DNA of 64,000 nucleotides, from contig RDEW01000001.1 in NCBI GenBank assembly GCA_011109175.1, positions 2,111,485 through 2,175,484 of the forward strand, in the 5' to 3' direction. This DNA is from Dicyema japonicum (Eukaryota; Dicyemida; Rhombozoa; Dicyemidae). The notes under the pieces are model-generated. The model did no database searches and was not told the DNA's origin. It worked only from the letters and a program-made list of their open reading frames with translations. Within the stretch, counting starts at the first letter, position 1, and each line of letters starts with the position of its first letter. Below, piece by piece: positions 2,938-51,686 of the stretch. A program made the translations under genes and the position numbers.

Positions 2938-3178
2938 ATGAGAATTATGACCACTGAAATGCTCATCATGGATAAACCAGAGTATGTCAATCAGAGACTA
3001 ATTGACGAAATTGTAGAGATTTTATGGTATTTGGCCAGAGACTTTGACAAAACAATGTTAGAGGAGGTTATGATTTTGTACATTTTAGAAAGCTCGCAAC
3101 AAAAGAAACAAAGAAATGATAATATTTGTGATTCTTTTTGTTATTTACTTATTCTTCTCAGGTTATATAATTTTTTAA
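2938..3178 (+). CDS. Small tail-anchored membrane protein, family not recognised
   Basis: Exon 1 (2938-3066) and exon 2 (3089-3178) are joined across a 22-nt GT...AG intron (3067-3088), giving 72 residues. Unspliced, the frame continues but loses the pattern. Spliced, the protein has an acidic helix-like N-terminal half (PEYVNQRLIDEIVEILWYLA), a basic stretch (KARNKRNKE) and one C-terminal hydrophobic segment of about 20 residues (MIIFVILFVIYLFFSGYIIF). That is the layout of a tail-anchored ER or mitochondrial membrane protein. I do not recognise the family; small SNARE-like or assembly factors are possible. The first ATG of the frame is used. No TE homology is visible and the flanks are AT-rich. 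Confidence 0.5.
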
Positions 3179-3892
3179 TTTTGTTTTTCTTAAATTTGAC
3201 AGATTGCTCTTTATAAATTAAATTTTGACACAATTACTCATTTTCTGTTATTTTTAAGTACAAAAGTAATGACTGAGATGAAATCTATATTATATTTCAT
3301 TTTATTGTTAAACCAAGAGCATTCATTAAGTTTTAACCATTTATTCCCGCCTATTTAAAAAATATGTAATTGTCATTTATAACCATTGACCTGTAATGAA
3401 TTCTTAGGGTTGTCAAAGTCACATTTTAAGTTGTCTTACTTGTTGTTGATGTTAATTATAAATTTCAAATTTTATTTTCAAACAATAATAGATATAACTA
3501 CTATGTTAAACTTGTGAAAACATAAGTACAGAATAGATTATTTTATTTCAATCAAACTCAAAAATTAAAGTATAAAAATAATCAAAAAGTCAGGAAATTA
3601 TGTTTAAACTGTGACTGGTTGGTCAATCAATATGAGACATTAATTATCTATACATGTACTAACTGTTCGGTATCATATAGTACAACCATATTTTGGTAGT
3701 ATTTTGGACAATTTGATGACATATCTTTTTGATCTACCAAGAAATTCAACTATTTGCTTCTTTCTTATTTTCATAGAATCTTTGAAGGGCATATATTAAG
3801 AATTGTTCAATGCTAGCTGTATAAACACACAAGAACATAGCCGAATCAGATGATTTTAACATCGCCATAGTTTTCATGTGATATTATTATTA
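3179..3892. other. AT-rich stretch without a recognisable gene
   Basis: No long frame, no TE protein motif and no strong repeat seen. It separates the small membrane-protein gene from the 3' tail of a minus-strand LINE-A copy, whose (ATT)n-like tail lies at about 3882-3896. Confidence 0.5.
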
Positions 3893-5470
3893 TTTAAGCC
3901 AAAGAAACACCGTCTTAACCACTAACTAATATTCAGGTGATCTTGGCATCTCTCAAAATCGGCCATTTTTTTCGATGCTCCGATAGTGACCCCACACATT
4001 TTTTATACGGACGGGGTCTTTTTCCTCCTCTTTTGAAATTGCCTTCAGTTGTCTCCATGATAGACTCGAGTGTTCTGGGGGCAATTTCTCTATTCGTATA
4101 TTTCTAGTAAATTTTGCTCTTGACTGGATCTCTTGAATTTTTTAGGTTCGTTGCCGCCAGGTTAGATCATGCAGCACATGTATAGCCTATTGTTGGCTCG
4201 ATACTGCTTGTAGAGAGTCCCGAAACCTGGCGGATAAATTCCTCCACAGTTCCAAAGGAAGACTTTTACAAAATTGATCTTCTTTTCACAGGTTGATATG
4301 ATAGATTCCACATGGGCTGAGAAGAAGAGGAAAGTATCAAAAGTTACTCCCAGTATCTTCTGCGATGTCTTTTGTAATATAGGTACTCCAATTAACGTGA
4401 CATTAATTGTTTACGTTCCCATCTTTGTATTCTTAGTAAATAGAGTGACTGCTGACTTCCCGGAACATGAATTTAATCGATTTTCGCACAACCATTCATA
4501 TATGTTATTTAGTATTCCTTGTAATCTTTCTTTAGCATGTTCGACGTTTAAGGTACGACAACTATGTCATCGGCATAAGAAAGTGCACGTCATTATTATT
4601 CATAGGAACGGGAGATCATTCAGAAACAAATTAAAGAGGATTGGTGACAAAGGAGATCCCCGGGGTACACCATTGGGTAACAATCTCGATCTGGAACACT
4701 TGTTTCCGAAGCACTCTTTTCCTCGGCGTTTACTTAAGAAATTAGCTATCCACAACTTTAGTGGTGCAGCAATTTTTGTATTGATGATTGATCTTACTTG
4801 GGACAGAGTCGAATGCTTTTTGAATGTCGATTGTACATATGACCGATTTTTCCTGTTTTGGCTTGTTCAGTTATGAACTTCATTAGTGTTGTTAGGAAGG
4901 AGGTTGTTGATAATCCTTTTGAAGCCATGTTGGAATGTAGGTTGTGGGAGAAGGGCGAATAACTTTTAGGACCGGTTTTCCAGGATCCTCGACAATAAAC
5001 ATATAAGGGAGACTGGTCTGTAAGAGCCGGGATCGTTCTTCGGTTTTCCCGGTTCCAATATTGGACGATTTTTTGATAGTTTCCATAAAGTCGGTATGGT
5101 ATTTATGTTTAGCGATGTGTTGTAGATGATTGTCAATGCATTTATTGATGCTGGGCCCAAGTGTTTCAGCAGAATAAAAGGAATTCCGTCTGGGCCACAT
5201 GAGTTTGTTTTTTTCTGATTTGATATTGCTTTGGATACATCTTTAGGAAGAAAATAAGTCAGCTGGGCCACTTTGGATGGCTTTCTCTTTAATTTCGTTT
5301 GTGTTAATCTTTTTATAAGGAATGTGACTGATTCGGATACAATGTTTCATAATTTATTCAGATTGAGCTGGCATTGTTCTTTGTTATATTTGTATTCTGG
5401 GTTCTTCAGTTGGAAATTGAGGTCTGATTATTCATGGCAACAGAGATTCGCATGAGTTTCTTCCTTCGGA
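3893..5470 (-). pseudogene. LINE-A copy, RT half, 5'-truncated and frameshifted
   Basis: Read on the minus strand: pre-RT linker, then YFLPKDVSKAISNQKKTNSC, SINALTIIYNTSLNI and a PKNDPGSYRPVSLICLLSRI block (5271-4966), then finger/palm pieces and a 3' part with ILGVTFDTFLFFSAHVES near 4300. It is a close relative of the plus-strand copy at about 24100-25205, forming an inverted repeat of roughly 1.1 kb about 20 kb apart. Numerous shifts make it inactive. Confidence 0.8.
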
Positions 5471-5559
5471 TGTTGTTCGTGTTTTTCGTGATCAGAATGT
5501 TTAGTGCCCTGATTCGATTAATAACCTTTCGATTAATAACTTTTCCTCAGGAAATTCTC

Positions 5560-5830
5560 ATCAAGGAGTACTCCGAGAGACGAGCAGATGTGGCTTCCAG
5601 TGAGGCCCCATTTCAACAATACAAGGCCGACATGATACCTGCAATCCGGTGTTGGTTACCTCATGGTCCAATGACAGCTGAGTTCTTGCGAGAACTCGGA
5701 GGATTGCTTGCCAGAAAGAAAAGGGATCAACGAGAAGGGTTATGGCTAAGACAAAAGATCGGAATAGCCATACTCCGAGGGAACTCGTTCGCAATCCACG
5801 CAGCAGGCTTCCTCAACTGACATTTGTTTA
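5560..5830 (+). pseudogene. Retroelement R, C-terminal fragment
   Basis: The frame ending at 5820 carries FLRELGGLLARKKRDQREGL and IAILRGNSFAIHAAGFLN before the stop. The same pattern (FLNHLGKLLTDKTGDLRETR, VVRGNSLCISQQLN) ends the almost complete R element at 37039. Only the last 90 or so residues survive. Confidence 0.7.
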
Positions 5831-5859
5831 ATTGTTAAAAAAAATTTTTGTTTAAAAAA

Positions 5860-6475
5860 ATAAATAAATAATTTTTTAATTAAAAAAACTGAAAAAAATT
5901 GAACTCGGAAAATCATCAGCCGAGGCATGTAAAAAAATAAGCCTTAAGGATAATTTATTCTGATCAAGCATGGAATAAGCTAAATAGTACAACTATAATA
6001 AACTGTTTTCGACATCCTAAATGGACCAAAGATTTTATTGAAGAAATTAATGACGAGTTTTAGCCTGAAACTTATCAAGAATTCGTGTCAAGACTGCAAA
6101 TAAATGATCCAATTCCAGAAGATGAGTTTCTTCTTTATGATATATAGAGAATGAAGAGATCCTAGAAAATTTGGATGAAAATGATGAAGACAAAGAATCG
6201 TTTAGACTATGCTGTCTATAGATTCAGGAAGAACTTTAAACAGAAGGATGAAGTTAACTTAAATGTCTTCGATCCCCTTGATGATGTTAGTAGAAGCATC
6301 AAAACGAACATTAAAACAAGAATAACTGATTATTTTAAAGGAAATTAATGTTTTCATGTTTTAATTAGTCTTTAAAATAAAAAAGTGCATTTTATTAATT
6401 TATAAAAAATCAAATTTGCCTTTCGAATCCGCCGTAATTTCCCAGGTCCCAAATTTGGCGGATTAGAGAGGTTTA
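5860..6475 (+). pseudogene. Tigger/pogo-type transposase C-terminal relic
   Basis: Plus-strand pieces read AWNKLNSTTIINCFRHPKW and then an acidic tail, the usual end of DDE_1 (Tigger/Jerky) transposases. Stops interrupt it. A short inverted repeat AATCCGCC...GGCGGATT lies at about 6426-6465 near the likely terminus. Confidence 0.6.
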
Positions 6476-9242
<2,767 letters not shown>

Positions 9243-11114
9243 CTGGTCTACGTCATCCGCGTAAATTAGTTCTGTGATCGAAGTCGGTCCAGTTTTGGCT
9301 TGTAGGTCCCGAAGGGCGGCTTCCTGATAGACAACAAATAGTAGTGGCGATAAAGAATCTCCTTGAGGAGTGCCAATATGTGTCTCAAATTTACGGGATC
9401 GCTCTGAACCGACCCAGACTTGTACTTCAGTGTCCGCAAGTAGGACCCGGATCATCCTTTGACTGTCCTCGTCCAGCAACGTACCAAGTAACAACACTAG
9501 TATATTTCCGTGTGCAGTATCGAACGCTCATGAGAGATCAGTATGTGAACAGCCTTTTGGAATCTCTGCCTCATGGCACATATCCATCTATGTGTCCATC
9601 CGATATCCGCCGTGGATCTTTCTCTTCTAAAACCACTTTAACCCAGAGACAGATATTCGTCAACAGTGGGAGAAATCCTCTCCAGAACAATCAGAGATAG
9701 TAGTTTCTGTAGGGTTGTTAGAAAGATTATGGGCCTGAGATTTTTTACCGACCGGCTTCCCAGGTTTCTGTATAGGTATCAGAATTCCGTGCCCTAGTGG
9801 GACATTTTATGTGTTTTATAAAAATGTCTTTAAGCATGCTGCATAGGTGATAGACCAGTGAGGGCGGCAAATGTTTCAGAAGTTCCCCGTTGATACCGTC
9901 AATGCCCTGACTCCAATTGTTGTTCAGTTTTTGCAGACCCGTTTGTATCTCCGCCACCATAATTGGCGTAGTCAAAGATCTGGGGTGTCCGAAAAATTGA
10001 GTTATACGTTTGTGGAAGAGCGATTTAAAGTAATCAGCAATATTCTTTGCAATTTCTTTTTCGTCTTCCATTTTTGTCATTCACAATAAATCCTTTAGGT
10101 TTATCCGCTCTGTTTAAAAGCCGGATTGCTCTGAACATTTTCGACCCAAAATTAAGTTCCTCAACCTCCTCTGCGTACTGTTCAAGTTCTTTTCGTGGAG
10201 CAAGCGTATTCTTTTCTTTCCGTAGGATAGAGTTCCTTTTTTCTTTTAATAATGTATTCTCAACCCAGAGTCTCAATTTTTTGCTTTCTCGATAGAAAGT
10301 CTCTCTGTTTATCGTATCTACGATTGTAGCCTTCTTGAGACATCTTTCAATAGTGACCAGGCAATATTTCCAAAGTCCGTTAGATATTGCAGCCCATGCT
10401 AACTCAGGGGGCCTCTCATGTCCAATTTTGAGACGAAGTCGTCCACTTCATCAGTGAAACTCTTGCGGGTGACGATATTTGTGCTCAGACTTTCCATCTC
10501 TAATCTTCCAGAGTTGTGTTTGTTTTCTCTTGATCACTCCGACTCAATAGAATAGTGCCTCTATAAGATCGAGAAATCATAAGCATGCACTTGAATTCAC
10601 GCTCACACAGTATATAATCAATTTGATTGTAAATCGGGACTATCTCACCATTTAGATTTTTTATCTGTCCGACCCATGTCGTCATGTGCCTTGCTGGGTG
10701 TTTGAGCGCGTGTTGCACAGAAAGAGGTCAAATGCATAGCAGAATCTTGCGAGTGCAGTACCATTAGAATTTCTCTTCCCTCTATTGTGGGTTCCAATGA
10801 AATTTTCGTCCATGTATTGCCCAACTTCAGCTGAATGGCAGAGATCCTATCACTTACACTCCAGCATCTGTGAATCGTAATGGCATAACATAGATAGTAG
10901 CGAATCCCTGTCCATAATGTCTTGATTCTGGTAGTATGACTCTGTATTCTCCCATGACTTTATCAAGTCTTCTTTTCACTTTGGTTTCTTGAAGACAGGC
11001 TACAGAAACTTCATAACGAGTGAAGTCTCCGTCAGTTTTGTCCTTTGCAGTGGGGTCGATTCCTCTAACATTGAATGTAATTAGGACGAGTTCTCCAGGG
11101 TGTGTAATAGACAT
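9243..11114 (-). pseudogene. LINE-B copy: endonuclease, linker and RT, truncated by hAT
   Basis: On the minus strand in order: endonuclease start (VLITFNVRGIDP, VACLQETKVKR; 11114-10854), endonuclease end (IYNQIDYILCEREFK; 10718-10500), helical linker (10276-10034), RT start (LQKLNNNWSQGIDGINGELL; 10080-9745) and RT core with THIGTPQGDSLSPLLF and ELIYADDVD (9497-9245). The frame is broken between every block. Immediately after YADDVD the hAT terminus begins, so the hAT inserted in this LINE. RTE-like by motif layout. Confidence 0.8.
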
Positions 11115-11975: not shown

Positions 11976-12472
11976 ATGTGTGATCAGGTTAAACAATTTA
12001 GTCGTCAGCAAGTCAAAGAACTGTCACAAAATGAAGAGAGTGAAGAAAAGTTGATTATAATACACAACAAAGTATACAATGTAGGATCATATATCGAATC
12101 GGTATTTTTATTTATTAAAGTCTAGCATCCTGGTGGTGCTTTTATTATAGAACAGTACTTTGGTAGATAGATAGCTAATTTAATAGGGGAGGATGCCACC
12201 TCAAACTTTGAAGATATTGGTCACTCAAAGGATGCTGTACATATCCTCAGTACTCTCAAAGTAGGGGAAATTGATAAGGTTTGATGAGACTGACCTCTCA
12301 AGGAGATCACGTGGAATATAATGAGAACATTTTAAGTAGTGTTTATTTACCTGTATTTTCATAAGTTATTTAAGAATACAAACTGGACTCTGATCGGATT
12401 GTTATCTTTTCTTTATATTTTAGAATAGGGGCTATCTGTGTTGCTATATTCTTCTACTTTTACTTAACATAA
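11976..12472 (+). CDS. CYB5: Tail-anchored cytochrome b5
   Basis: Cytochrome b5 is a small haem electron carrier of ER or outer mitochondrial membranes that donates electrons to desaturases, P450s and reductases. Homology-guided joining gives 117 residues from seven exons: introns 12102-12125, 12163-12186, 12279-12302, 12311-12336, 12353-12374 and 12401-12423 (22-26 nt, all GT...AG). The haem ligands are visible: His43 in HPGG and His67 in FEDIGHS. VGEID follows. Residues 98-115 form a hydrophobic C-terminal anchor (TLIGLIGAICVAIFFYFYLT). Without splicing, stops occur right after IES and inside YFG. The first two introns are certain from the conserved motif; the 8- and 16-nt micro-exons before the anchor are the weakest part, and one 47-nt intron is an alternative. 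Convergent with the CIMAP gene; 135 bp between stops. Confidence 0.9.
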
Positions 12473-12607
12473 TGCACTTTAATTTTAATGATTTTCCTAA
12501 ATTGATTTTTAAGTTTGTGTCTACATAATTTATTTCGTTAAATAAGTTAATGTTATTAGTGCCTGATATAAAGAAGACTTCTATCTTGGGTTATTATTCA
12601 CTTTACT

Positions 12608-13436
12608 TTAATCCTTCGCTTCTACAATTAATGGGGCTGTATAGGGGGAGTGTCTAACTCCGAAGCTATATCCTGGGGCTGAGGGCTTCACAGAATTTAA
12701 CTAATAGTAAATGGTGACGTCACCTGTTGATGGTAGTAAGCAGCAGGACTGGGTTTCTGAGTTGTATCTGAGGGCATCATATTTCTGCTAGTCATGCTGT
12801 AGACAGGTGCCTTTCCTTTGTAAAGGTTTGGACTTATAGTATTGTAGGCTCCAGGTCCAGGAGTCTATTTTATATAATCTTTTAACATTTTGTAAATCCT
12901 GGTGGAATCCTCCTATTTTACTTTTTGGAGTCATCGAATAAGCAGGAGCCTGTTTGTGGTTGCTTTGGTGGCACTTTCCAATCACAGACGGTAGCATATA
13001 TGCGTTGGAACCTAAATAAAGTTGATTATAGTACCTGGAGTCATGTCTGTAGTTCTGTCCGATCTCTTCAGTCCGAAAGAGTAGGCTGGGGGAGAACGAT
13101 AAATTTTGTTATTCTTTTCAGGAGCGTAGAGACCAGGTCCAGGTGTTTTATCAAGTGACCATTCTTTTGAACGGGAAGAAAGAGAAAACTTTGGTGTTCC
13201 ATCTTTACCTGTCTTTGAAATACTCGGATCAGGGTAATAACAAGGTCCAGGACTTTGTGACAAAGTCGATTGGTTGTATTTCCAGCAAAACTATAGCATG
13301 GTGCTTTTGAATGAACACTTCTAAAATCATGTTGATTTGTTCCAAGTAAAGAGGGAAGGGGATATTTTGGTCCAGGACTTGGAAACATAGCTGCTATTGG
13401 TCCACGTGGTACAGTCGGCTTATAATTAGATCCCAT
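12608..13436 (-). CDS. CIMAP1: ODF3/CIMAP1-like SHIPPO-repeat axoneme protein
   Basis: Members of this family are ciliary and sperm-tail microtubule proteins made of STPGP (SHIPPO) repeats. The minus strand encodes 253 residues, close to the ~254 of vertebrate ODF3. Visible landmarks in order: PRGPIAAMFPSPGPKYPLP near the N-terminus, SPGPCYYPDPSISKTGKD, KTPGPGLYAPEKNNK, PPAYSFGLKRS, YMLPSVIG, SKIGGFHQDLQN, TPGPGAY, and a C-terminal KPSAPGYSFGVRHSPYTAPL block. Introns: 13034-13012 (23 nt), 12886-12865 (22), 12723-12701 (23). One problem: the frame shifts at an A3 run (13279-13281); a fourth A restores the conserved SFAGK reading, so there is either an assembly error or a disabling deletion. 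A ciliary role fits an animal with ciliated cells. Confidence 0.88.
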
Positions 13437-27707: not shown

Positions 27708-27716
27708 TTACTATTA

Positions 27717-28146: not shown

Positions 28147-28776
28147 TTACTTGGTAAAATATTCTATTTTTTTCATTCCTAAACTAAACTCTTCAAACTA
28201 ATTGAGCCATCTCTATTCAAATCCAGTTCTGAAATGATCTATAAATAAATTCAAATAATAACGTTTTGCAAGACTGCTTTTAAAGTATTGCTATCTAACG
28301 AATATTCACCTATAATATTTTGTACTGTAGTCGAAATATCCTCCTGGCCTATTTTCCCATTATCGTCACAATCTCACAAATTTATTATAAACACCACCAT
28401 AGATTTTGAATGCGAAATTAATCTTCACTTCTATGTCTGCACGACAAGAAAGAATTGAATGTAAGTTTAAAAAATCCTCAAAATCCATAAATGGATTGTT
28501 ATCAGTAATTATTTTAAAAATTCTACCCGAAAAAGGATTATACTCATGTAAAATATAAAACAACCTTAAATTCTGGAATATTACAAAATTGTTCATAGGA
28601 AATGCCTTGATTTTCTATCGTCTCTGAATTTGTTTTAGTGTACATTTTAAATTTTTTATAAAGAGTTAATATTTCATCTTCAAATAGATATGTTAGGTTC
28701 TACAAAATTATTATTAAAAGATAAACAGTATATGCATTCATTTTTCTTCAACAATAAGACTTTGCTTGTTACCCAT
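28147..28776 (-). CDS. CIB2: CIB2-like calcium and integrin-binding EF-hand protein
   Basis: CIB proteins are small, often N-myristoylated EF-hand regulators of integrins and, for CIB2, mechanotransduction complexes. Five exons on the minus strand give 177 residues (CIB2 is 187). It starts MGNKQS, identical in the first five residues to vertebrate CIB2 and a myristoylation signal. Then EDEILTLYKKF, NPFSGRIFKI, MDFEDFLNLHSILS, NFAFKIY, and EF-hands DCDDNGKIGQED (about 111-122) and DLNRDGSISFEE (about 153-164). Introns: 28726-28700 (27 nt), 28564-28543 (22), 28397-28373 (25), 28262-28239 (24). Two single-base problems: exon 1 needs one more A in the run at 28741-28745, and the last exon one more T at 28195-28197 (minus sense) to reach the conserved EEF reading and a stop at 28147. 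Either assembly error or pseudogene. Confidence 0.88.
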
Positions 28777-33866: not shown

Positions 33867-36800
33867 AAAAAACGTGGTGGTGTGGTGTTGTGTTGTGTTT
33901 GTCGACGTGTTGTTACGAAAAATGCAGACACAACAATGAAGACTAATGAAGAAAGGAAGGAAAACACCTATCCATGTGAAAAGTGCAACGTAACTAATAT
34001 GAGAAAAAGGATGATCGCTTGTGCAGCATGTTCAAGATGGTATCACAGGTCTTGCGTAGGAGTGTCCAAGAAGGCTCTTATCAATATGACAAAATGGAAC
34101 TGCCAACCATGCCTTTCATCTGGTACTGCTTTTTCTTACTCCAATCAAACTGCTTGTATTGAACCGTTTGACCCTACTCTCGTAGCAGATCCTGATGAAG
34201 CTCTGAAACTGATGTCTAGAACGCGCTCGGACGTGACCATTCCTGTGAAGATTCCCAAAGGTGCGAGAACTGCTGTTGCCGAGGCTCTGATCTCCACCAT
34301 CAAGGATGTTTTGAAGCCTGACGCCGTTTCTTCGGAATGGGTCAAATTTTTCCTTTTCCCGTCACTCACTCTTGGGATCAGAAGACCAACGGAAGCATCC
34401 ACTTCTCTCGCAACGAATATCAAAAAGAGAGTTAGACTGTTTCTAAATGAACATAAAATGTCACTTACTGCTTTAAAATCAACTCAAATTGCACCCCGGA
34501 GTTCAAAGCGTCCGAAAACGGAGGAACTTCGCTTAATAAAGAAACTAATCAGGATGAAACTTATGGAAGGCGATATTCGTGGTGCTGTACGGCTATTAGT
34601 TTGTGATCCTGGGACACTTAAAAACACCCCTGAAACGCTCATGTCTTTACGAGAAAAACACCCCGGATCCCCCGAAGACTTGAGAACTATAAAACCTTTC
34701 CACGAGGAACAATTGCTCGCCTCTAACGAAGATATAATCACCTCCCTGCGTTCATTTCGTCCTAGTAGTGGAGGTGGTATCGATGGCTTGAGACCCGGTC
34801 ACCTACGTGATCTCACAGCTCCAATGATGGGATCTGTCGGAAAGGATCTTTCGAATGTTATTTGCGAACTGATCAACAAAATTCTTTCTGGATGTTTGTC
34901 TCCTTTCGGTCGAGATATGTTATTTTCTGCTAATCTTGTTGCTCTCCGAAAGCCTGACGGCGGTGTCAGACCGATTGCTATTGGAAACGTGTTTAGGAGA
35001 CTTGCAGCTAAAGTCGCTTGCTTTTCTGGGGTTCAAAGATTACTTCCTAGTTTCAGTCCTATACAGATGGGCGTTGGAGTTCGTGGCGGTGCAGAGGCTT
35101 GTGTCCACGCAGTGAGGAGTTTTTTCACGTCGTCGTCCAATGCAAAGAGGACGTTGTTGTCTGCAAAGTAGATCTTAAGAACGCATTTAATTCCATAAGG
35201 AGAGATCATTTATTGGAGTTATGCCAAAAAAATTTACCACATATTTGGGAGATTGTTCGCCTTTCATATTCTAATCCATCATCATTGGTTTTCCACGATG
35301 CCATCATTAAATCACGAACTGGTGTTCAACAAGGCGACCCACTTGGACCTCTTCTCTTTGCTTTGGGGATCCATGGAGTAGCCGCATGCTTAAAATCACC
35401 TTTAAATTTATGGTATTTGGATGACGGAATCATTGGTGGACATCCAGATACAGTTTTGGAGGACGTGCGTCGTTTGATATCTGAATTCGAAGCGATTGGC
35501 CTTTCTGTCAACAAGGCCAAATGTGAATTAATCAAGATCAATTTGAGTCCCGATCTGACTACTTTCTACAATGACCAGTTTAAACACACTCTCGAAAATT
35601 ATGCATCGGTTCCAGTTGGGGAGTCTCTGTTCCTTGGTTCTCCTATATTCGAAGACCAAATTGTGGACGTGTTTAAAGAAAGGACAATAGAGCTCGGTAC
35701 TTTTGAGACCCGTTTGCGGCATGTTGACAACCATATTGCCCTCTTCCTATTGAGAAACTGCTTGTCCATTCCAAAGATAGAAAAATTTATTAATGAAAAA
35801 GAGTTAAAAATTAAGGCATCTGAATGGCCATGCTATTTCCCCTAACAATAGCCAACGAGATACGTTCTCGGAACCAACCAGTCTCTCGCGGATCCTTGGT
35901 CACAGCTTGAATCATGGAGCCGATCTTACGAACCTGCTTGGGGGCCAAGGATTAAACTATTTACTAAGGACTGCATCATGTTATAAGTGTGATTCCCTTT
36001 TAATGGAATACTCTGATTGCCTCAAAAGATGTACTGAATTCGTACTTAACGTTTCTCTTGACACCCCTGGATGGATACAGACTCAATTACCGATATCATT
36101 GGGTGGAATCGGTCTTACTACTCCCTGCCAAATTGCTGGCCCAGCGTATTTTGCCTCTAAACTTTCATGCAAAAACCAAGTGGACTCAATTCTTTCAAAG
36201 CTTCCATCTCGGAAACTGTCCAATGACTTGGTTGAATACATGGACGTGTGGCGGAGTGAAGGGCTTAGCGAGCCGCGTAATCCAGACCAACAATCGTCTT
36301 GGATGATCCATAGATGGAATGCTCTGGCATCCAACCTAGTCAGCCGGCTCTCTGGACATCGCCTGGATTGTTTCCAAAATTCGAGGGAGGCGGTTGATCT
36401 TGGCTTGGGGTTTACCCATGTCAAGAAGTTGGTGGATTGTTGGATGATGACTCACTTCGTACAGCTGTATGTCTACACCTCGGATTGCCTGTTTGCACCA
36501 AATCGAAGTGCAAATGTGGCTGTCTATCGGACGAACTGGGTCTCCACCTCCTCTCATGCCGGAGCGGAATTGGCAGATCTTCTCGACATTCGGCAATGAA
36601 CGGCATCATTAAGAGGGCATTAGAATCGGCTGGATTCCGTTGCCGGATCGAACCGACTGGTCTATTTGACAACGGAAGACGCCCTGACGGCATGACCTCC
36701 TTTCCTTTTGAGCGAGGGCGAAACCTTGTATGGGATGTGACCTGTGTCTGCTCTTTCGCCCCAAGCAAAAAAAATAATTCACCGGGCAGACCTTCTTCTC

Positions 36801-37060
36801 AAGCAGAGGAAGTAAAAAATGCTAAATATTCGGATATCAGCGACAGGTACATTTTCGCACCTGTCGCGATTGAAACTTCGGGGAACTTTGGCCCTAAAAC
36901 GCTGAAGTTCCTGAACCATTTGGGAAAACTACTAACTGACAAAACTGGTGATCTTCGTGAGACGAGATGGCTCAAGGAGAGGCTCTCGTTGGCTGTTGTC
37001 CGTGGGAATAGCTTGTGCATCTCCCAACAGCTGAATTAAAATTAAAATTAACTATTCTTT
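33867..37060 (+). mobile_element. Retroelement R, nearly full length, three frame breaks
   Basis: A non-LTR-type element without APE endonuclease. Order along the plus strand: PHD-type finger (CEKC...CAAC...HRSC...CQPC, 33990-34120); basic linker; RT start GGGIDGLRPGHLRDL (34770-34815); VALRKPDGGVRPIAIGNVFR (34940-35000); KVDLKNAFNSIRRD (35166-35205); GVQQGDPLGPLLFALGIHG; YLDD near 35413; LGSPIFED; thumb; a CTKSKCKCGC...H..SC zinc site (36495-36570); and an endonuclease with RRPDGMTSF and WDVTC (36675-36750), a PD-(D/E)xK-type pattern as in R2/NeSL-like elements. Frames break near 35100-35160, 35850-35905 and 36420-36440. Stop at 37037-37039. It sits inside the hAT element. Confidence 0.85.
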
Positions 37061-40900: not shown

Positions 40901-41025
40901 GGTCACCTATTCAATTTCTAAGAGGAGAAAGGTTTAGAAGCGAGTAGTAATGTTCGATTCAACTGTGTTTTCCGTAAAAATAAAACTCTTTTTTGTCGAA
41001 ACGATTATTGATTTGAAACCAAATA

Positions 41026-42024: not shown

Positions 42025-42211
42025 TAGTGGCAGATTATTGACGGATGACATTCACCATGTGATGGGTAGCTCGTGCTGGAAATATTAAATCGTATAGAAA
42101 TTGTTATTAAAATCGAAGAATTGTTGACACGTTTTCCCAAATGATTATAATTCCAATTGATTAAATTCTACAACTGTGTCTATAAATATCAGGTTTCGTA
42201 AATTTATTAAA

Positions 42212-43522
42212 ATGTCTCCTCTGAAAAGTAAAGTGAGAGTATCTATGTTCGGGGATATTGCGGGGGTTGCCGAACTATTGAACAGTTCTATTAATTTTAA
42301 AATTTCAATTGGCAAACCTTATGTCAGAAGAGTACAAGTAGTTCCTCACAAATTTAATGGTCTTGGAATTGTTGTGAGAGGTGGGGCTAATTCTGATTTC
42401 CCGTTAATTGTGACTCAAATATTTAATGGGAGTGTGTTTTCTGAACAACTAAAAGTGGGAGATGCCATACTTACTGTTAATGGGATCAACATTGAGGAAA
42501 GCAGTCACAAAGATGCTGTATTTTGTATCAAATCGTGTAAAGACTATTTATGTCTTGAAGTGATGAATTTTGTTTATTTGAATTGTGATAAACGAGACAA
42601 GGTTATTAACAAACTATTTTGGGATTCAAATTTGACTGAATTAGAAAATTATGTCTTTATTAGAATATGCATATGTGACTGCAATGTTGAAAAAAATGAA
42701 AATTATTCTTTGACCTTAAAAACCCGTGATTACTCGAGAAGTTTGCAAATATCGTTTCCATCTAAGAAAATTTGTAAAACATGGAAACATGGAATCAGAT
42801 TTGAGGCAATGAAAGGAAATATTCATTCACGAATATCCTCATTTGAGTCCTCACAAGAGTTGATGGAAGGATCCTCGTTTTATGCCTTGACCTGGCTTTA
42901 CATGAAAGTAGTCTACTTTCGAAAAATACTGTGGAAGCCTTCTTTCATTGTAATCACTAAAAAGAATATATATATTAACAGAATACCAAAAAAGGGAGAA
43001 CCGTGGGAGAAGGCGACAGAATGGAATGGACTCTTATTTTGTAGGTTTATATTTTATTAAAATTAAGTTTGCATGGTCGTCAAATTTACCCAGCGAGAAT
43101 TACATTAAAACGACAATTTGATTTTGGGATCAAAAACACAGAATTTCTTTTGGTTGATCCTAAAGATAAGAATAAATTGGTTAATTCTTTCGAAATGGCA
43201 GTGACTGAAGCGATAGTATTGCATTCCTTATACAAGTGTGGTACTTTTTGTTAAAAGGATGTATTAGACACGTGGGTGAATGATAGGAGAGGTTGCTTAC
43301 TTTTCAGTAGAAGCAACGGAATAACCTTCAAAGTAAATAATTTGGTTTTGTGGAATTACAAATTCTCTGATATAAAAAAGTTTTCTCTAAAAAACAACAA
43401 ATTTCGTTTAAAATTTGAAAAGGGAATAAAAAATGTTATATTATAATTTATTTTAGATTGAAATGACAGATTCTTTTGCAATTCCACAATCAAGGCATTT
43501 TTTATTTATGCAAAAAATATGA
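42212..43522 (+). CDS. SNTG: Gamma-syntrophin-like scaffold (PDZ, PH, SU)
   Basis: Syntrophins are membrane-associated adaptors of the dystrophin complex. Four exons give 412 residues. PDZ at about 38-117 with the carboxylate loop GLGI, KVGDAILTVNGINIEESSHK. A second PH-like region follows (WKPSFIVITKKNIYINRIPK) and a C-terminal SU-like unit with VLWNYKFSDIKKF, very like gamma-syntrophin VLWRYKFSQLK. Introns: 43045-43067 (23 nt), 43241-43267 (27), 43435-43456 (22); exon lengths sum to a multiple of three. Start: the ATG at 42212; the frame is open upstream to about 42176 without another ATG. Shorter than vertebrate gamma-syntrophins (about 520-540), with the first half of the split PH domain reduced or on an unseen exon. 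No frameshift needed. Confidence 0.85.
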
Positions 43523-44316
43523 GGTGGAACCAAACACAGTGGCTTTAATAGATTTTACATAAATCATCTTCCCTTATAAATTATTATTAACCTCTTCAGT
43601 CATTTACTTATACTGAATCGGTCGATTAATATCAAGTAGATGGAATTAATTGCACTAAATGCAAAATCTACAATTGTGTTTTTTGTGCGTTCGACTTGCC
43701 GTTGACACGTCTGGTTCCCTTGAGCCTGCTTTAATTCTTGAGTCGTCTAGGGAATCGGATTTCAAACATGATCAGGAGACCCCCGTAAGCGCTGCTGGTT
43801 ATTGAGCGAATCTCACTCGCCATCCTGAGAGAGAATAGGCAAAAAGTATGAGCATTTGCTCACTTTTTTCGCAATAAATTGTTAATGTTTATTATGAGCC
43901 TCGTGGCACTATTTGGTGCTGCAAGATTAATTGGTTGAAGTATTCTGTTTGTTTCTCTGTTCCTCCTTTTTCTTCCTATTGAAGTGGCGTCATGTGATCA
44001 ACCTGTCTAGGTGGTGCCCAGTGTCTGGCTGGCACGATGAAGGATCATTTTCTCTCCCCCACTCCACTGGAGGGGTTTCCACAACTGCAACTATGGACGT
44101 CTTTTCCCTTTATGCTTATTCGGGATGGACTGTTTCTGTAGAAGTGGACACTTAATTAGTTGTTTACTTTAACTTCTCTTTCGGTGTATTCGGGGTTAAT
44201 AAATTTTAATTATAATTTAAAAATAATTAAAGATATTTTTTATGGCAAAAATATTTCAGTGTTAAATTAATGGTTAACTATAAAATAAATAAATTGTTAG
44301 TCATTTATAGGTCATA
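43523..44316. other. Intergenic, no gene seen
   Basis: Between the syntrophin-like gene and the small secreted protein gene. A mid-GC stretch (43670-44160) has a 74-codon plus-strand frame with no recognisable motif. Nothing else supported. Confidence 0.35.
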
Positions 44317-44630
44317 ATGGTTTGGATTTGATATATTTATTTAGATTTTCCTACTTTTTTCATCTCTCATTCTTTCAAATAATCCAATCGACTTGGAAAT
44401 TTATTTTGGCAATAATGATGAACTCAACGGCTACAAGAAGGAATCTTTTCCTGTTGATGATCAAATTATTGCAATTGAAAATGACAAAATATTTAACCAT
44501 GATGTTCTCAGACAATCAAAAGTGAAACAAGAACTCCACAAGGCCGTGTTATGGGTAATTTTGTTAAATCAATGTTTAGTATGCAAAGAATAATTTTTAC
44601 ATAACATTTTTCATGGGATCGGACATGTGA
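44317..44630 (+). CDS. Small putative secreted protein, not recognised
   Basis: Exon 1 is just the ATG (44317-44319), followed by a 25-nt intron (44320-44344), exon 2 (44345-44554), a second 25-nt intron (44555-44579) and exon 3 (44580-44630). The 87-residue product begins MIFLLFSSLILSNN, a signal-peptide-like start, then PIDLEIYFGNNDELNG, DDQIIAIENDKI, VKQELHKAVLW and YAKNNFYITFFMG. The DDQIIAIENDKI plus helix plus beta-strand layout is faintly PDZ-like; I would not press that. If the second intron is retained the frame ends VILLNQCLVCKE. A partial duplicate lies at 38788. The ATG-only exon is unusual and rests on frame logic alone. Confidence 0.45.
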
Positions 44631-45075
44631 TAGTTCTAGTGGCCTCTTTAATTTCTTATGCTGCAAAATTCAGTAGATGGGTTAGTTTACGTTCAATATT
44701 ATAGTTATCAAGGAAAAACAAGACAGAAGACTGCGAAGAAATAAATGTATTGGGTTTGTTCAATTTTAGTTTATTGAGAAGGATATTTAATTAGTTCATG
44801 GTGTCACAGTTTTTGGGTTATGGGTTTTGGCTAATTTTTGTTTAATCGTGTAGTATTAAGTAGCTAACCGATCCTAAAAGTGTTCTGATTTGCTATTAAA
44901 CTAATATTTAGATTTGCTTCCATTTTCAAAACGGAATTTTCACTAACTTGTAGGAGACCAACGGCTATTAAGTAAGACGCAGTATACAAACATTATATTC
45001 CACATCGTAGACGAGTTAGGTTTACCCGTATGTCTCTCGGGAGAGAGGATTCCAATTGATCTATTGATGGCATAG
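44465..45075. repeat. Segmental duplication, second copy
   Basis: Matches 38788-39258 plus 39655-39780 with high identity (see that entry). It covers the 3' half of the small gene and about 440 bp downstream. Confidence 0.85.
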
Positions 45076-45939
45076 TATTTTATTATCATCGACTCTTGAG
45101 ATGATTCTGTAGTAACATAATCGTGTATATGTTTCAAACGACCCCGGTCATTGGTGCTGGAAGGGTTGGGTGATAGAATTCGAGATTGGTCACTGGTTGT
45201 CATAGTAATTTTTCTTTTTTTCAAGGATTTGCATAGTGGATGGTCTGTAGGCTTGGAGAGGAATTCAGAGCTCTTATTTCCAAATGGTCTCCAATAGAAG
45301 GATTCGGTCAATCGATTCAATGATAGTCCATTTCAGAGGATTGTAATTGTTTAAACATCAGCGATATATATACCTAAAAACCCAAGAATCGTAACTGCTG
45401 GGACGATCGCGTCGATACTATTGAGGCAATCGAACATAAATTATGATGGCCTAGTTTGAGCATCCACAAGTGAGAGCGGTGCGCGGTTGATTACTCTTCC
45501 CTGTGTGGAGTTAAAGGATTTAACTCTCTCCTGACAGAGTTCTGGAAGGAACGATAGGCAAAGAGCGATAAACAAATTATTATGTAAACTGATCGATATT
45601 ATATACAATCAGACTTATATCACGAACAAAAGATTTGACACTTGTCCCGTGGAGAAGTGGGAAATACCTCACCTGAGACGCCACTTGAGTAGATGGTTTT
45701 TCCTTTTCAACCATACGATGACAGCCACTTTCCAAGGATCGTCCTCACGAATTCCTTACATGTCTAGGTAGGATCCAACTCCGTATCTCTTAATACCACC
45801 GAATTGTTGGAAAGTCTGTAAAGGAAGTGTGATATAATACTAGCACAAATACACCAAATATATTTATTAATATGCAGAAAGACACAAACAAATAATTACT
45901 GTCGCTCATAATCACAAGACTCTTCAGTCTACTATAACA
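45076..45939. other. Possible exon-bearing spacer, unresolved
   Basis: A minus-strand frame (45320-44943) includes KSLKKRKITMTTSDQSRILS and a Ser/Thr-rich stretch, and could be an exon of an unknown gene; its last third lies in the duplicated segment. Another minus-strand stretch near 45790-45730 reads FQQFGGIKRYGVGSYLDM after a TTTACAG acceptor. I cannot build a gene from these. Confidence 0.3.
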
Positions 45940-48900
45940 TCAACAAAGTACCCAAAATGAGTTGTCTGTCTGTTCAACAAAACTTTGCCTCTTTGCGTTT
46001 GATCCCATCAATTGTTGTGGGTTTATCTTAACCAACAAAGGAGCTCCATAGTTCCTATCAGTATTATTCCGTTTAACAGACAAAATCAACGGACCCTTAG
46101 GATTCTTGTTTAAAGGAGATTGGTCCTCAATACGATTGAAGGATTCATTCGCCATAACTGCATATTATTAAGAGACAAACCATTAGTCATAGGTTTCATA
46201 GGTTCTTCCACACTCACTGGAGTATTAATCAGAATTGGTAGATTGTTAGATTCAGGGAAAGCAGGGAGTGCTGTAAAAGAACTGAGTCCAGATGTATTAG
46301 AAACCTCACGTTTTTCATCATTTTTAGCAGCTAAATATAAAACAGACGATAACCATCATTCCTCATCTCCTCAATTGCCAACTCAAACTTACGCTTTTGG
46401 GAGTCGCATGAGAATTTCATTTTGGAAGCATTTATCACATTGTAGTTTCCACCAGTCCTCACACACTCAATCAACTCATCTTCAACCAACATTTCGGTCT
46501 CGAGACGGTAAATCCTGAGTACCTCATAGACCTCCCCTGGATGTTTGTCAGCAGCGTGGTTGTTAGTACTATAGGCATCCCGAAACCGATTAAGACAGAT
46601 GGAACATTGAAATCGAAGAGAATAGTCAAAGTGAACTCCCAAATGCATTTTAAGATTGTGTAATTTGTGTGTTGTGTAAGTACATCGAATACATACAAAC
46701 AATACTTTCTTATCAGAAATAGGGCTACAAGTCGGTTTCACTTGTGGACTTTGCAATTTTGACTGCATTGACTTTTCATGTGAGAAAAAACTGAATTCAT
46801 TATCTCCCTGTCTTTGCACTTGTAGAGGCCCCATACAATCCATGAGACTTGAAAAACTTGTCAAAGTACCAATTGAGGATTCAGAACTCAATGGGGAACA
46901 ACCCAACAATTTCCTGAGTTCTCCCATGATCTGAACATCCTTGGTTGCCTCGTTCATATCATATCCGGAATGTTTGGCCACGTGACTGACAATCTCCTCC
47001 CAATTCCTTCCACTATAATCACATTGTTTGCAGTTAACAATATCAGCCTGTCCATGTTCCTTTACCAAATGTTTCATAACATCATGGGAGGAAGACTCAA
47101 TTTCATCACAAATTGGACATCGCCTTGTTACTTCCACTTTGGGACCACCTCGATTTCTTCTAAAGTTGAGGATTTCCTCTTCGTAGCCTGGAGGAAGGTA
47201 TTCTGGTTCAGGTGACTCGTCAGGAACACATTTATATCCACTTCTGTGCTTGACCACCTTGTAGTTCATATCAGCGGCACACATGCAGACAATTACCATA
47301 GCCTGAGCAGTGTCGTCAGTGGATAGAACTTGTTTAATGTAAGAGTGGGCCAAGTTCTTGTCAATCTTGTGTACTGTGTGCATATGTCTTATAGTATTAC
47401 TTCTACCAGAAAAGTCTGCATTGCATTTCACACATATAAATGGTTTAACACTCAAATGTCTGAAAACGTGGTGTTTCATTCTGTACACAACTTGACAGTC
47501 GTTCATGCTTACGGTGTATCGGTTACATTTTATACAGTTTAGTTCTACTTTTGTTGGGTTTGTCGACACACGTGGGGATGAAAATGACTCATGCTTCTGG
47601 ATTGAAGTTTCGATTTGACTCATATCAGCACATTTACTAGAATCTCCGAATAAAAATTCATAATAGGGGACAGAAAACATTGGCCACTGAAGTGTTTTGG
47701 CCTGAAGTCCTGGATGACTCTCCGTAAGGTGTTTACTCACATTGGAGGCTCTGATTCCGCGAGTGGGGCAAATTGGACAACGGAATGGGTAAATAAATAG
47801 ATGTACGGACAAAATATGACGAGTAATGTCAGCAGTTAATAAGGTCTTGTAGGAACAGTTGTTGCAACAGTAAGAATAACGGACTCCATCCTCATGTGCT
47901 TTTCTGGACCACATTTGACCAAATAGGGGACAATCTATACTCAGAGGACTACATCCTTTCAGTTCTTCCTTCCTTTCAGCAGATAAAGTCTCCAATCGGA
48001 TAAGAGCTTGTTTATGGAGTTCAATTCCCTCTGGTTTGACTCCACAGAGGGAGTAGAAATTTAGATTGTCCTCATTTATTGACTTGACTTGGTGGGAATT
48101 TCGATGTGTCAGGTTTCGACAGTCCTGTCTTATCTGAATGGCCACAAGGACATCATTGTTAGTCGAGAAAAAACAGGTAGTATCCACTAGAGAAAAGTAA
48201 TCAATATCCGCAGTCCCCTCGTGAATCTTATTGTGGTGGACCGCCAATCCAAACTCGTCTGAGCTCACAAAATCACATTTTCTGCATCTAAGACGCATTT
48301 TTGATCGATGAAGTCGACTTATGTGCCTCAGAACAACATCCCGGGATCGATTCGGAGCAATTTGTGAACAATAGCCACAACACCAAAGCTTCACACACTT
48401 CTGTGCCGTAGTTCCAGTTGTGGTTTCAATTCCCGTAGAAATAGTTAAATTCCCGTCCAAGTTATCAGGGAGTTCGAGGACCAATCGGGAATTTAGATTG
48501 ACTTCATTCAGACAATCACTGTGGGCTTGCGTATTGTGATCAAAGATCTCTCCCAATGTCATACGAGTTTGCATGCAGTAAATACACTTGAGATTCCAAA
48601 GATCTTCATGAGAGGCCATCATATGGTCCCTTATTAAATCGAAAGAATTCTCTGTTGTTTCACAATACTTGCACTTAAACTGGGATATACGACACTTCAA
48701 ATCTACTAATGTTATGAGGTTGGGTATACCTGTTACTGGAGGATCAGAAGATTCCAAAACAGAACATATCTTGTCACCAAAGTTGTTTACTGTGAGTTTA
48801 AATCGGCATGTGGAGTCCATCAGATTTCCATGAAAGTCCATAATGTGCTGGTTCATTAACTTTATCTCCGATTCCCTGTGAAAACCGCAATGTCCACAGT

Positions 48901-51686
48901 AATACGGAACTGTATCTGAATTTTTAATTCGAACTTCAAAGTGTTCTTTATTTTCTAATATTCTATAATCCAATAGAGAATCACAAATCTGTAAGACTCC
49001 TTGGTGTAGAAGAAAGTGACGTTCAAGTTCATCACTTGAGTTAAAAGTGTCTGGGCAGGTTGGACAACAAATGGATATTTCTTCCTTATGGGTATCACAA
49101 AAATGAGATTTCACGTCCTTTTCAGGACAATTGGAGACAATCTCCAAGCCACAATAGAAACAGTTATAGTGTTTCATAATATCGGTCGTTTTCGAGGATA
49201 CATTTGTTTCCGTTATTTTAGAATCCACCAATGGCCATGTAGCAACTCCAAATACATAAAAATCCCCAATTTGCAATAACGACCGAATTGGAAGACCGAC
49301 TTCCAGTTTTTCAGTATGATTATTTTGTATGTGGTCCACCAAAGAATGGGCAACATTAGAGGCTGACTCTCCATAGTCGCAATATGCGCACTGATACCAT
49401 GAACTCGACTTAGCACGTGAGTTGATGCATAGACTGAAGTGACCCAAAAACCAAGCCTGATTGTCACACTTTACTCCACACAATACACATGAACGTTCTT
49501 CACTCACATTTGGTTCTTTCAACATAATTCCATCCATATCTCCACCAAGTTGTAGATTGTGACACATGTCAATCAAATTCAAGCCAAATAATTTATTAGT
49601 TGGATAATGATTCCATACCACGTGCTCAAACATTTTTTCCATGGACGAATTGACAGTAAAACAATAAAGACATGCATATTCCTTAGTGATTGACTCATAC
49701 TTGTTAGTCATAACTGGTTTTAAGCTGTTTTTGGTTTTGAATGGTCTTAATGATTTGTCGGACAACATAGGGGTTACAGAACTGACAAATAGAATAAAGG
49801 TCTTTGACTTCTTCGAGGAACACGTCTTTACTTCAATTAGTTGTGTAATTTCACTCTCTTCGACAATCCCCCTCATGGACTTTCCCTTCACTGCAGGATG
49901 GAAATGGGAATAGTGTCGTTGTAGAACCTCAACTGAACCAGTGGCAAAGTCACAGTCATCACAAGAAAACGGAGTCAATGTGGAATGTACACCAACCAAA
50001 TGAAGTATTGCCTCGTTGTATGAGTTAAAGTAAAGTCCACAGTACTGACAGTAGTGTCCAACTGATGGTAGACTAGTCTTTTTATTATCATCTTCGCACT
50101 CTGAGTCTAAAAGGTCGTCTGAGACACTAAAGAACATGGATTCGTCCTTCCATCGGTGGGTCAAACTCAGAAAACACATAATGTCCTCATAGTATCCGTA
50201 AATAGGCCCATATATTTGATGAGTTGTTTGTTGATGAGTCATCACACCAGTTGGATCAGAATCCAGGTAACCACATCGTCCACATATGAACAAATTAACT
50301 CCTCCCAAATGGGCAGCTGCCACGTGCATTAACAAATCACCAATAGAAGAACGATCACAAATAAATGAACAGTCCCCACAACAAAATTTCTTGACAGACT
50401 GAAGCTGGTGGTGAATTAGGTAGTTGAAGACATTGTCCCCACGCAGTTTCTTTGTCTCCAAGAATTCACCTGTGTGAGAAGAAATAAGAGAATCTTCTAC
50501 TTCCTGACTATCCGTCAAAATTGAGTCATCAATAAGGAGTTGTAGACAGTTTCTGTACTCTCGCACTGTAAATAGGCTCTGTATTGTCGACCCTTCTACT
50601 TTTTCTTCCAAAACAGTATTAAATGGGGAATCATGGTTAATAATGGAATGTATATACACTCTGTCCTTTGATTTAGACTTGTATGGACATTGGGAACAAC
50701 TGAAGGGTTTTATTGAGGAATGAAATTCTAAGACGTGGTTGAAAAGATGTTCAAGATTACATGAATGGCTCTTAAAGCTGCAGTAAAAGCATTTAATCCG
50801 CTTGTTTCCAACTTGAATATCCGGTAGCAAAGTCTCCAGAGGAAATGAAGTAAAATCATTCCCATCAGGCAACCATTCTATCCGTTTTCCGTAGAATCTT
50901 GTCACCAAGAGTTGTGCGTCAGTCAAAACAGCATGTCCCCCGTTTTTCCGTTGGAACTTTTCTGGGAGAGATCCAATCATGAACCCAGAAGTAGGATTCG
51001 TAAATTCACGACAGATGAGATGTCAACATCATTTTCTGAATAGGGCATCTTCCTCCTTGAAACATCAATTAAGCGATTGTGAATCATTGAATGATGATCT
51101 CCCATAGTCTGCATAATATTTGTGGAAAATTGGCAGAATTTACATCGATAAATACTGATATTTGAATGAGATAGTAACAAGTGTTGTAGAAATACATCTC
51201 TTTCCTTGAAAATTACACCACAGTGTCCACATTGATGAGTCAGTGAACTTTGCATACCACTAGACTTGTTGAGCAATTCATACCGTTCGGACAAGGAGCC
51301 TTGTGGTTTTTGAGATATCACTCGTGTTGGTCTACTCTCGTCATCAAACCCGACTTTCTTGCTTAAATTACCATATTTTGTTCTCTGGGATCTCCGAATT
51401 TGATTTGAATATCCTATTAGTGTTAATTCATAAATACGGAAGATGGTAGGTCTGCATGCCTCAATGAGCAGTGCTGTAGAACTTTACTAGACTCCATAGA
51501 AAGGAATCCACAATAAGTGCAACCAAACGGTCTGTAGAAGAGATGTTTAAAGTATGAGTGTCTTCTAACTTTGACGACTGATCGGGCATGGAAAGAACAG
51601 TTTTTACATCTAAATCCGCTAATTCCGTGAATTTTCTCACAAAGTTCATCTCTGTGAGGTTCAAATTCGTGAACAGTCTGACTCAT
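45940..51686 (-). CDS. Large multi-C2H2 zinc-finger protein
   Basis: Probably a nuclear DNA- or RNA-binding regulator; the ortholog is not recognised. Start ATG at 51686 (MSQTVHEFEPHRDELCEKIH). Exons 51686-51438, 51413-51372, 51336-50985, 50961-46354, 46330-46181 and 46157-45940 sum to 5619 nt (1872 residues). Introns are 24, 35, 23, 23 and 23 nt. The giant exon encodes more than 20 C-x2-C...H-x3-5-H units, mostly of the degenerate type spaced by 20-60 residues (for example CGYCSQIAPN...H, CIRCTYTTH...H), rather than tight Kruppel arrays with TGEKP linkers; this recalls ZNF462-like proteins. The 35-nt second intron is the least certain; a single 53-nt intron or a one-base error are alternatives. 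The C-terminal exons are Ser/Asn/Pro-rich without fingers. The 4.6-kb exon has no frame error. Confidence 0.85.

What the first reader, a model, noticed from the sequence alone, without database searches (positions are those of the whole stretch)
2938..51686. Host genes are interrupted by 22-27 nt introns
Joining exons by protein homology in six genes gives about 20 introns of 22, 23, 24, 25, 26 or 27 nt, all GT...AG. They were found independently in cytochrome b5, ODF3/CIMAP, CIB2, gamma-syntrophin, the zinc-finger gene and a small membrane protein. Exon sums are multiples of three except where a homopolymer error is suspected. The donor beyond GT varies (GTATTT, GTTATC, GTGGTG, GTTAAA), there is no room for a normal branch point to acceptor distance, and acceptors end TAG or AAG. 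This points to a dicyemid-like spliceosome.
Basis: partly seen in the sequence, partly recalled or inferred. Interest (0 to 1): 0.9.

Follow-up and report, generated by a model that had tools for sequence, protein, structure and literature searches.

The report
Ultrashort introns of a dicyemid genome
Genes here are cut by real introns of about 22 to 27 letters, a published oddity of tiny octopus and squid parasites called dicyemids; the fresh lead is that this genome also appears to keep the RNAs of the second, rarer splicing machine.

Summary
With an aligner that has no intron-length preference, four window genes (cytochrome b5, CIB2, ODF3/CIMAP1, syntrophin) give 13 junctions, 12 of them GT-AG and 22-27 nt. 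In the same 64.7 Mb genome, 113 homology-flanked introns have median 25 nt; 83 are 22-27 nt, 109 GT-AG. Decoy splice pairs and planted introns show this is not an aligner effect.

The dicyemid reading is well supported by intron size, donor weakness, genome size and GC, so the trait is already published (PMC2222250, PMC6543705, PMC2483917). An exotic spliceosome is not supported: inspected U1 and U2 copies keep their pairing sequences, and SF1 and U2AF65 are present, themselves cut mostly by 22-25 nt introns. Likely mechanism: intron definition by the ordinary major spliceosome, a branch A about 7-9 nt from the 3' end, and the first AG at least 21 nt from the donor; the AG rule is provisional.

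New here: candidates for all four minor-spliceosome snRNAs (U11, U12, U6atac over Rfam's cut-off; U4atac under it, but able to pair with this U6atac). No U12-type intron was found.

The parts
12102..12125 (+). cytochrome b5 intron 1, 24 nt GT-AG
   Evidence: spliced alignment to CYB5A
12163..12186 (+). cytochrome b5 intron 2, 24 nt GT-AG
12279..12302 (+). cytochrome b5 intron 3, 24 nt if GT-AG; the frame asks for 23 nt (GT-AA) or a one-base error
   Evidence: weak homology; the aligner gave 12279-12301
12353..12374 (+). cytochrome b5 intron 4, 22 nt GT-AG
   Evidence: (permissive setting), weak homology
12401..12423 (+). cytochrome b5 intron 5, 23 nt GT-AG, in the membrane anchor
   Evidence: (permissive setting), weak homology
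12701..12723 (-). ODF3/CIMAP1 intron 3, 23 nt GT-AG
   Evidence: both alignment settings
12865..12886 (-). ODF3/CIMAP1 intron 2, 22 nt GT-AG, between DLQN and TPGPGAYN
   Evidence: both alignment settings
13012..13034 (-). ODF3/CIMAP1 intron 1, 23 nt GT-AG
   Evidence: both alignment settings
28239..28262 (-). CIB2 intron 4, 24 nt GT-AG
28373..28397 (-). CIB2 intron 3, 25 nt GT-AG, phase 1
28543..28564 (-). CIB2 intron 2, 22 nt GT-AG
28700..28726 (-). CIB2 intron 1, 27 nt GT-AG
42212..43044 (+). syntrophin-like gene, 5' part with PDZ domain; the one relative found is P0001, labelled Octopus sinensis
43045..43067 (+). syntrophin intron, 23 nt GT-AG, phase 2
   Evidence: reference P0001 with eight residues taken out

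Best explanation
The window comes from the nuclear genome of a dicyemid (Mesozoa, parasite of cephalopod kidneys), whose spliceosomal introns have shrunk to a floor of about 21-22 nt. They are most likely removed by an otherwise ordinary major (U2-type) spliceosome working by intron definition. U1 pairs mostly with the exon end (AAG) plus GT, because the intron side of the donor is almost free. SF1/U2AF and U2 select a branch A roughly 13-20 nt from the donor and 7-9 nt from the 3' end. Exon ligation then takes the first AG at least about 21 nt from the donor. Shown here: the introns, their lengths, the weak donor, A enrichment at -7 to -9, U1 and U2 RNAs with canonical pairing sequences, SF1 and U2AF65 genes. 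Supported but provisional: the first-AG rule. Inferred: that these factors act on the short introns, which A is the branch, and the order of events. No RNA data were available.
For: Intron set; controls; consequences of retention. Donor bits and exon AAG. Branch signal (n=103, 400 dinucleotide shuffles): YTRAY with A 5-11 nt from the end 24 against 14.3 (0 of 400 reach it), CTRAY 11 against 3.2 (0 of 400), A at -7, -8, -9 z = 3.7, 2.8, 2.7; control motifs ATRAY, CARAY, CTRTY not enriched there, GTRAY mildly (34 of 400). First AG: 0 of 103 short introns hold an internal AG ending 21 nt or more from the donor, while 46 of 103 hold an earlier one; rule obeyed by 107 of 116 GT-AG introns of up to 100 nt. 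Machinery: U2, 22 of 25 matches over cut-off, GUGUAGUAUCUG in the copy inspected; U1 with ACUUACCUGG in two of three copies inspected; SF1 163/306 and U2AF2 233/435 identical to the human proteins as I recall them. Dicyemid identity: against PMC6736024, PMC6543705, PMC2222250, PMC2483917; the one relative found for the syntrophin is labelled octopus yet shares 151 of 341 residues with this divergent gene and seems to keep a short intron in its protein.
Against: No transcript evidence. The species was not identified (no 18S or COI comparison made), and 'dicyemid' rests on matching numbers and on P0001. The branch motif is weak and the 5-11 nt zone was chosen: over the whole intron YTRAY is not enriched (45 of 400 shuffles reach it) and YTNAY not at all (38 against 39.3 of 76); PMC2483917 saw no signature in 41 dicyemid introns. 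The AG threshold was also chosen after seeing the data: in 45 weaker introns not used to set it there were 2 exceptions against 4.8 expected, not significant alone; one well-supported intron (L001, 42 nt) breaks the rule, and two doubtful ones above 100 nt (188 and 272 nt) would break it too. The plain test of AG rate before and after 21 nt gives only p = 0.024, and AC shows a similar drop. The U2AF family search stayed under its cut-off exon by exon, and all 11 U1 matches are just or well under Rfam's. U2AF35, SF3B1 and U6 were not searched.
Confidence: 0.88

Rival explanations
1. The organism is an orthonectid or another compact lophotrochozoan rather than a dicyemid.
For: Orthonectids also have short introns and reduced genomes (PMC6543705, passages read).
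Confidence: 0.06
2. The gaps are not introns but coding insertions, assembly indels or decayed reading frames.
For: Some loci do need frameshifts or hold stops (ODF3 and CIB2 in the window; several tubulin copies with 5-11 frameshifts).
Against: Same positions in many paralogues (actin residues 41, 113, 191), sharp length mode, GT-AG specificity against 15 decoy pairs, 65 of 69 would break the frame or bring a stop.
Confidence: 0.02
3. The short introns are removed by an unusual, reduced spliceosome that lost branch-point and 3' splice-site factors, as in some other short-intron or intron-poor eukaryotes.
For: Very weak donor and branch signals; no pyrimidine tract (longest C/T run 4 nt on average); the SF1 peptide that docks on U2AF65 reads RTRF where I recall RSRW for the human protein, which might weaken that contact.
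Against: SF1, U2AF65 with the stretch YWDVAPPGFEHVTP (recalled as the U2AF35 docking site), U1 and U2 are present.
Confidence: 0.12

Closest known systems
Ultrashort introns of Dicyema (D. acuticephalum, D. japonicum, Dicyema sp.)
   Same: Length mode near 25 nt, GT-AG, weakest known donor consensus, compact genome of about 65 Mb
   Different: Here a weak branch-point-like signal is detectable with 103 introns where 41 introns gave none (PMC2483917); otherwise no difference found
Paramecium introns (median 24-25 nt)
   Same: Size, GT-AG, low GC, best spliced at 23-26 nt (PMC12862383, passages read)
   Different: A unicellular ciliate; PMC12862383 reports complete absence of the U11/U12 snRNP in the ciliates it considered, whereas minor snRNAs are present here
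Orthonectid (Intoshia linei) introns
   Same: Shortened introns in a simplified lophotrochozoan parasite
   Different: Median 57 nt, most above 30 nt (PMC6543705, passages read)
Minor (U12-type) spliceosome of other eukaryotes
   Same: U11, U12, U4atac, U6atac candidates with conserved pairing ends
   Different: U6atac reads GGC where the Rfam consensus has AGC; no minor intron found yet; the host's usual introns are shorter than the shortest average minor intron of the pan-eukaryote survey (Blastocystis, just under 42 bp; PMC10639083, passages read)

Membership tests
Dicyemid ultrashort introns | Narrow intron-length mode in the mid-twenties | tested here: met
   median 25 nt, 83 of 113 between 22 and 27 nt
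Dicyemid ultrashort introns | Very weak 5' splice site beyond GT | tested here: met
   0.63 bits over +3..+6 in 69 introns; 0.5 bits for 5' intron boundaries in PMC2483917 (the measures may differ)
Dicyemid ultrashort introns | No branch-point signature (PMC2483917, 41 introns) | tested here: not met
   weak YTRAY/CTRAY and A enrichment 7-9 nt from the 3' end in 103 introns; probably a matter of sample size, and not a defining feature in the later papers seen
Dicyemid ultrashort introns | Organism is a dicyemid (18S, COI, mitochondrial minicircles) | not tested
   no marker comparison made; only genome size, GC and the octopus-labelled relative P0001
Dicyemid ultrashort introns | Removal shown by cDNA | not testable with these tools
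   no RNA data
Major (U2-type) spliceosome | U1 and U2 snRNA with canonical pairing ends | tested here: met
   U2, one copy inspected; U1 11 matches, best 69 bits against a cut-off of 69.5, three inspected, two with ACUUACCUGG and one with ACUUACUUGG
Major (U2-type) spliceosome | SF1 and U2AF65 | tested here: met
   SF1-HH over cut-off; U2AF family hits under cut-off exon by exon; joined alignments 163/306 and 233/435 identical
Minor (U12-type) spliceosome | U11, U12, U6atac over Rfam cut-off | tested here: met
   67.6, 85.4 and 37 bits against 39, 53 and 33; one copy each
Minor (U12-type) spliceosome | U4atac able to pair with U6atac | tested here: inconclusive
   32.4 bits against a cut-off of 53; own pair -22.5 kcal/mol, human pair -23.1, mixed pairs with recalled human RNAs -18.8 and -16.6, 0 of 2000 shuffles as good
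Minor (U12-type) spliceosome | AGC triad in U6atac (recalled as near-invariant; in the Rfam consensus) | tested here: not met
   reads GGC in the only copy
Minor (U12-type) spliceosome | U12-type introns in coding genes | tested here: inconclusive
   5 strict pattern matches of 22-49 nt against 5 for the reversed control, none clearly coding; wider search did not complete; 7 near-match rows at four start sites in 358 kb of held sequence (overlapping loci included), none convincing

The most novel reading that the evidence does not exclude
An animal whose introns have shrunk to a 21-22 nt floor has nonetheless kept a working minor spliceosome, with U4atac and U6atac that have changed together and a U6atac triad of GGC instead of AGC. 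It therefore holds the shortest U12-type introns known, below the 30 nt at which the pan-eukaryote survey cut off, and its major introns are measured by a near-fixed donor-to-branch distance followed by the first AG.
Probability: 0.25. Interest if true: 0.72.

Novelty: already known. Interest (0 to 1): 0.4.

Why it matters
The trait itself is published, so its worth lies in what this genome makes testable. In the human introns tested, splicing fails when the donor-to-branch distance drops under about 46 nt (PMC11291888, passages read), yet here that distance is roughly 13-20 nt (inferred from A enrichment) with U1, U2, SF1 and U2AF65 retained. If the first-AG rule holds on a full transcriptome it would help to explain why lengths pile up at 22-27 nt. 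Minor snRNAs in a dicyemid have not been reported as far as my searches of open-licence papers show (each return one paper, PMC2483917, which treats both subjects but reports no such snRNAs in the passages I saw; two searches showed only part of their hits). The survey of minor introns in over 3000 genomes left out introns under 30 bp (PMC10639083), so minor introns of this size could not have been seen there.

Tried and rejected
Homology-free test of intron lengths in 140 kb (open frames joined by GT...AG): only a faint excess at 23-30 nt (for example 27 nt 36 against 18.0), and GT-AG was not among the eight top-ranked of 256 pairs; too weak, not used as support. Search for minor introns by strict pattern: 5 hits, 5 in the reversed control. 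The best-looking one (35 nt, L036/L037) lies upstream of a longin/YKT6-like frame that I name from recall, not in a coding exon. L039 (42 nt) could not be framed. Dicyemid label by database search: actin query gave 7956 proteins, none of the 120 listed labelled dicyemid as far as the clipped names show; the zinc-finger protein gave no hit among 2893 candidates. Looking for a shared snRNA promoter block in nine snRNA genes: no 8-mer shared by three snRNA classes. L085 as U4atac: weaker score and poorer pairing than L084. Rfam on the window at gathering thresholds: no match.
Full report
WHAT WAS CLAIMED. Six genes of a 64-kb window were said to be cut by about twenty GT-AG introns of 22-27 nt, pointing to a dicyemid-like spliceosome.

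WHERE THE WINDOW LIES. The window is C1:2111485-2175484 of a 64,672,829-base genome in 191 contigs. Mean GC of the 32 blocks is 0.36.

CHECK IN THE WINDOW. I wrote a protein-to-DNA aligner with three intron phases, a fixed intron cost, a preference for GT-AG and no length term (a minimum of 10-15 nt apart). Against human CIB2 it gives four introns of 27, 22, 25 and 24 nt and one frameshift; against cytochrome b5 two of 24 nt at the stricter setting and five of 24, 24, 23/24, 22 and 23 nt at a permissive one; against ODF3 three of 23, 22 and 23 nt and one frameshift; against P0001 one of 23 nt in the syntrophin, after eight residues were taken out of P0001. Twelve of the 13 are GT-AG as aligned; the third of cytochrome b5 is not, or hides a one-base error. 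The zinc-finger gene has a 1549-aa uninterrupted frame, and its upstream junctions, like those of the small membrane protein, I could not confirm.

CHECK IN THE GENOME. Actin introns recur at residues 41, 113 and 191. Keeping introns with at least 15 aligned codons and at least 6 identical residues within 20 codons on each side, and dropping repeats, leaves 81 (119 before the filter, 89 after it), and 113 once all kinase loci are used: lengths 22, 23, 24, 25, 26, 27 nt occur 18, 13, 14, 18, 10, 10 times; 97 are at most 31 nt; the other 16 run from 35 to 1816 nt, the longest probably gene-end or tandem-copy artefacts (L077, for example, holds a duplicated segment). Eight damaged or partial tubulin loci were left out of the count. 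Controls: 16 splice-pair models, planted introns (9 of 12, 10 of 11, 31 of 34 and 70 of 87 recovered from the shortest to the longest class, 15 other junctions), consequences of retention.

ANATOMY. In 69 short introns the exon end is AAG-like (A 0.54, A 0.71, G 0.64), +3 is mostly A or T, and +3 to +6 carry 0.63 bits. The 3' end is TAG 62, AAG 18, CAG 17, GAG 6 of 103. There is no pyrimidine tract (longest C/T run 4 nt on average). In 103 short introns (90 from the genome, 13 from the window) A is enriched at -7, -8, -9, and YTRAY and CTRAY motifs with A 5-11 nt from the end exceed all 400 dinucleotide shuffles, while three of four control motifs do not stand out. Against this, the 5-11 nt zone was chosen after a first look, YTRAY over the whole intron is not enriched (45 of 400 shuffles reach it), and YTNAY in the first 76 introns was not (38 against 39.3). 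PMC2483917 (passages read) reported 0.5 bits at dicyemid 5' boundaries and no branch signature in 41 introns.

A POSSIBLE RULER. Forty-six of 103 short introns hold an internal AG, but none holds one ending 21 nt or more from the donor. Among 116 GT-AG introns of up to 100 nt (of 122) the used AG is the first at 21 nt or beyond in 107; five failures are shorter than 21 nt (probably alignment gaps), two are in-frame ambiguities, one is poorly supported and one (L001, 42 nt) is a real exception. A best-supported subset gives 54 of 55, but the 13 window introns are in it by my assignment, not by a flank score. Introns of 35, 49, 68 and 78 nt obey because they hold no earlier AG past 21 nt; two doubtful ones of 188 and 272 nt do not obey. 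Against the rule: the threshold was picked on these data, 45 weaker introns outside the set gave 2 exceptions with 4.8 expected, and the AG-rate test over introns of 21-100 nt is only p = 0.024 with AC showing a similar drop. I hold it as a hypothesis.

MACHINERY. U2: 25 matches, 22 over cut-off, the one copy inspected with the canonical branch-pairing stretch. U1: 11 divergent matches, all under Rfam's cut-off, best 69.0 bits against 69.5; of three inspected two begin with ACUUACCUGG after two bases and one has ACUUACUUGG. U2AF65 aligns over human residues 16-474 (two frameshifts in the alignment) and SF1 over residues 12-326 of the part I supplied; U2AF2 is cut by introns of 22, 22, 23, 23 and 68 nt (plus a 625-nt artefact at the start), SF1 by 23, 23, 23, 24, 25, 25 and 40 nt. 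So the early-assembly core looks ordinary as far as tested; U2AF35, SF3B1 and U6 were not searched.

UNEXPECTED: MINOR SPLICEOSOME RNAs. U12 (C68:163471-163599, 85.4 bits) keeps GAGUAAGGAAAAU; U11 (C1:1591391-1591510, 67.6 bits, the window's own contig) keeps AAAAAGGGCU; U6atac (C34:237761-237858, 37 bits) keeps AAAGGAGAG but reads GGC for AGC; a U4atac candidate (C169:123513-123629, 32.4 bits, under the cut-off of 53) pairs with this U6atac better than with the human one. C68 also carries a beta-tubulin gene with a 26-nt intron, so the U12 contig belongs to the same genome. I found no minor intron. PMC10639083 (passages read) excluded introns under 30 bp in all species. Of my searches of open-licence papers, searches returned one paper each, PMC2483917; two searches listed only 25 of 80 and 8 of 6,942 papers.

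IDENTITY. One of 278 word-sharing candidates from a database of 5.8 billion proteins is related to the syntrophin, and it is labelled Octopus sinensis; its protein seems to read through a short intron at the place where the window has one. I take it for a dicyemid sequence in an octopus assembly, which is an inference. Species not determined.

VERDICT. Real, ordinary for dicyemids, already published. The splicing rule and the minor snRNAs are the parts worth following.

Noticed in passing
L086 (C1:1591391-1591510), L033 (C68:163471-163599), L084 (C169:123513-123629), L035 (C34:237761-237858): Candidates for all four minor-spliceosome snRNAs (U11, U12, U4atac, U6atac) in a genome of 22-27 nt introns; U6atac reads GGC for AGC, U4atac is under its cut-off.
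   Followed up: partly
window 42212-43067 and P0001: The one relative found for the syntrophin is an 'Octopus sinensis' protein that seems to include a retained short intron: probably dicyemid contamination of an octopus assembly.
   Followed up: partly
L001, PKA gene, intron at residue 79: A 24-nt gap with GA...AG ends and an in-frame stop: a possible GA-AG intron or a damaged donor.
   Followed up: no
L034, SF1 N-terminus: The U2AF65-docking peptide reads RTRF where I recall RSRW for human SF1.
   Followed up: no
window about 13260-13285: ODF3/CIMAP1 gene has a frameshift not explained by an intron: assembly error or decaying copy. CIB2 also needs one frameshift in its alignment.
   Followed up: no
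L052 and L058, L063, L064, L066, L070: One beta-tubulin lineage has slightly longer introns (26-31 nt) and several decayed copies that keep most of those introns, so they look like DNA copies, not retrocopies.
   Followed up: partly
window 46331-50980 (-): 1549-aa zinc-finger frame, weak match to ZNF462, no relative at E <= 0.001 among 2893 candidates.
   Followed up: partly
window 7860-8225, 33936-37039, 61509-62012 and elsewhere: Frames that read like reverse-transcriptase fragments (named by eye, not by a family hit); the frame at 33936-35171 begins with a PHD finger.
   Followed up: no
L077: A CDK-like kinase locus with a duplicated segment that repeats the same 23-nt intron.
   Followed up: no
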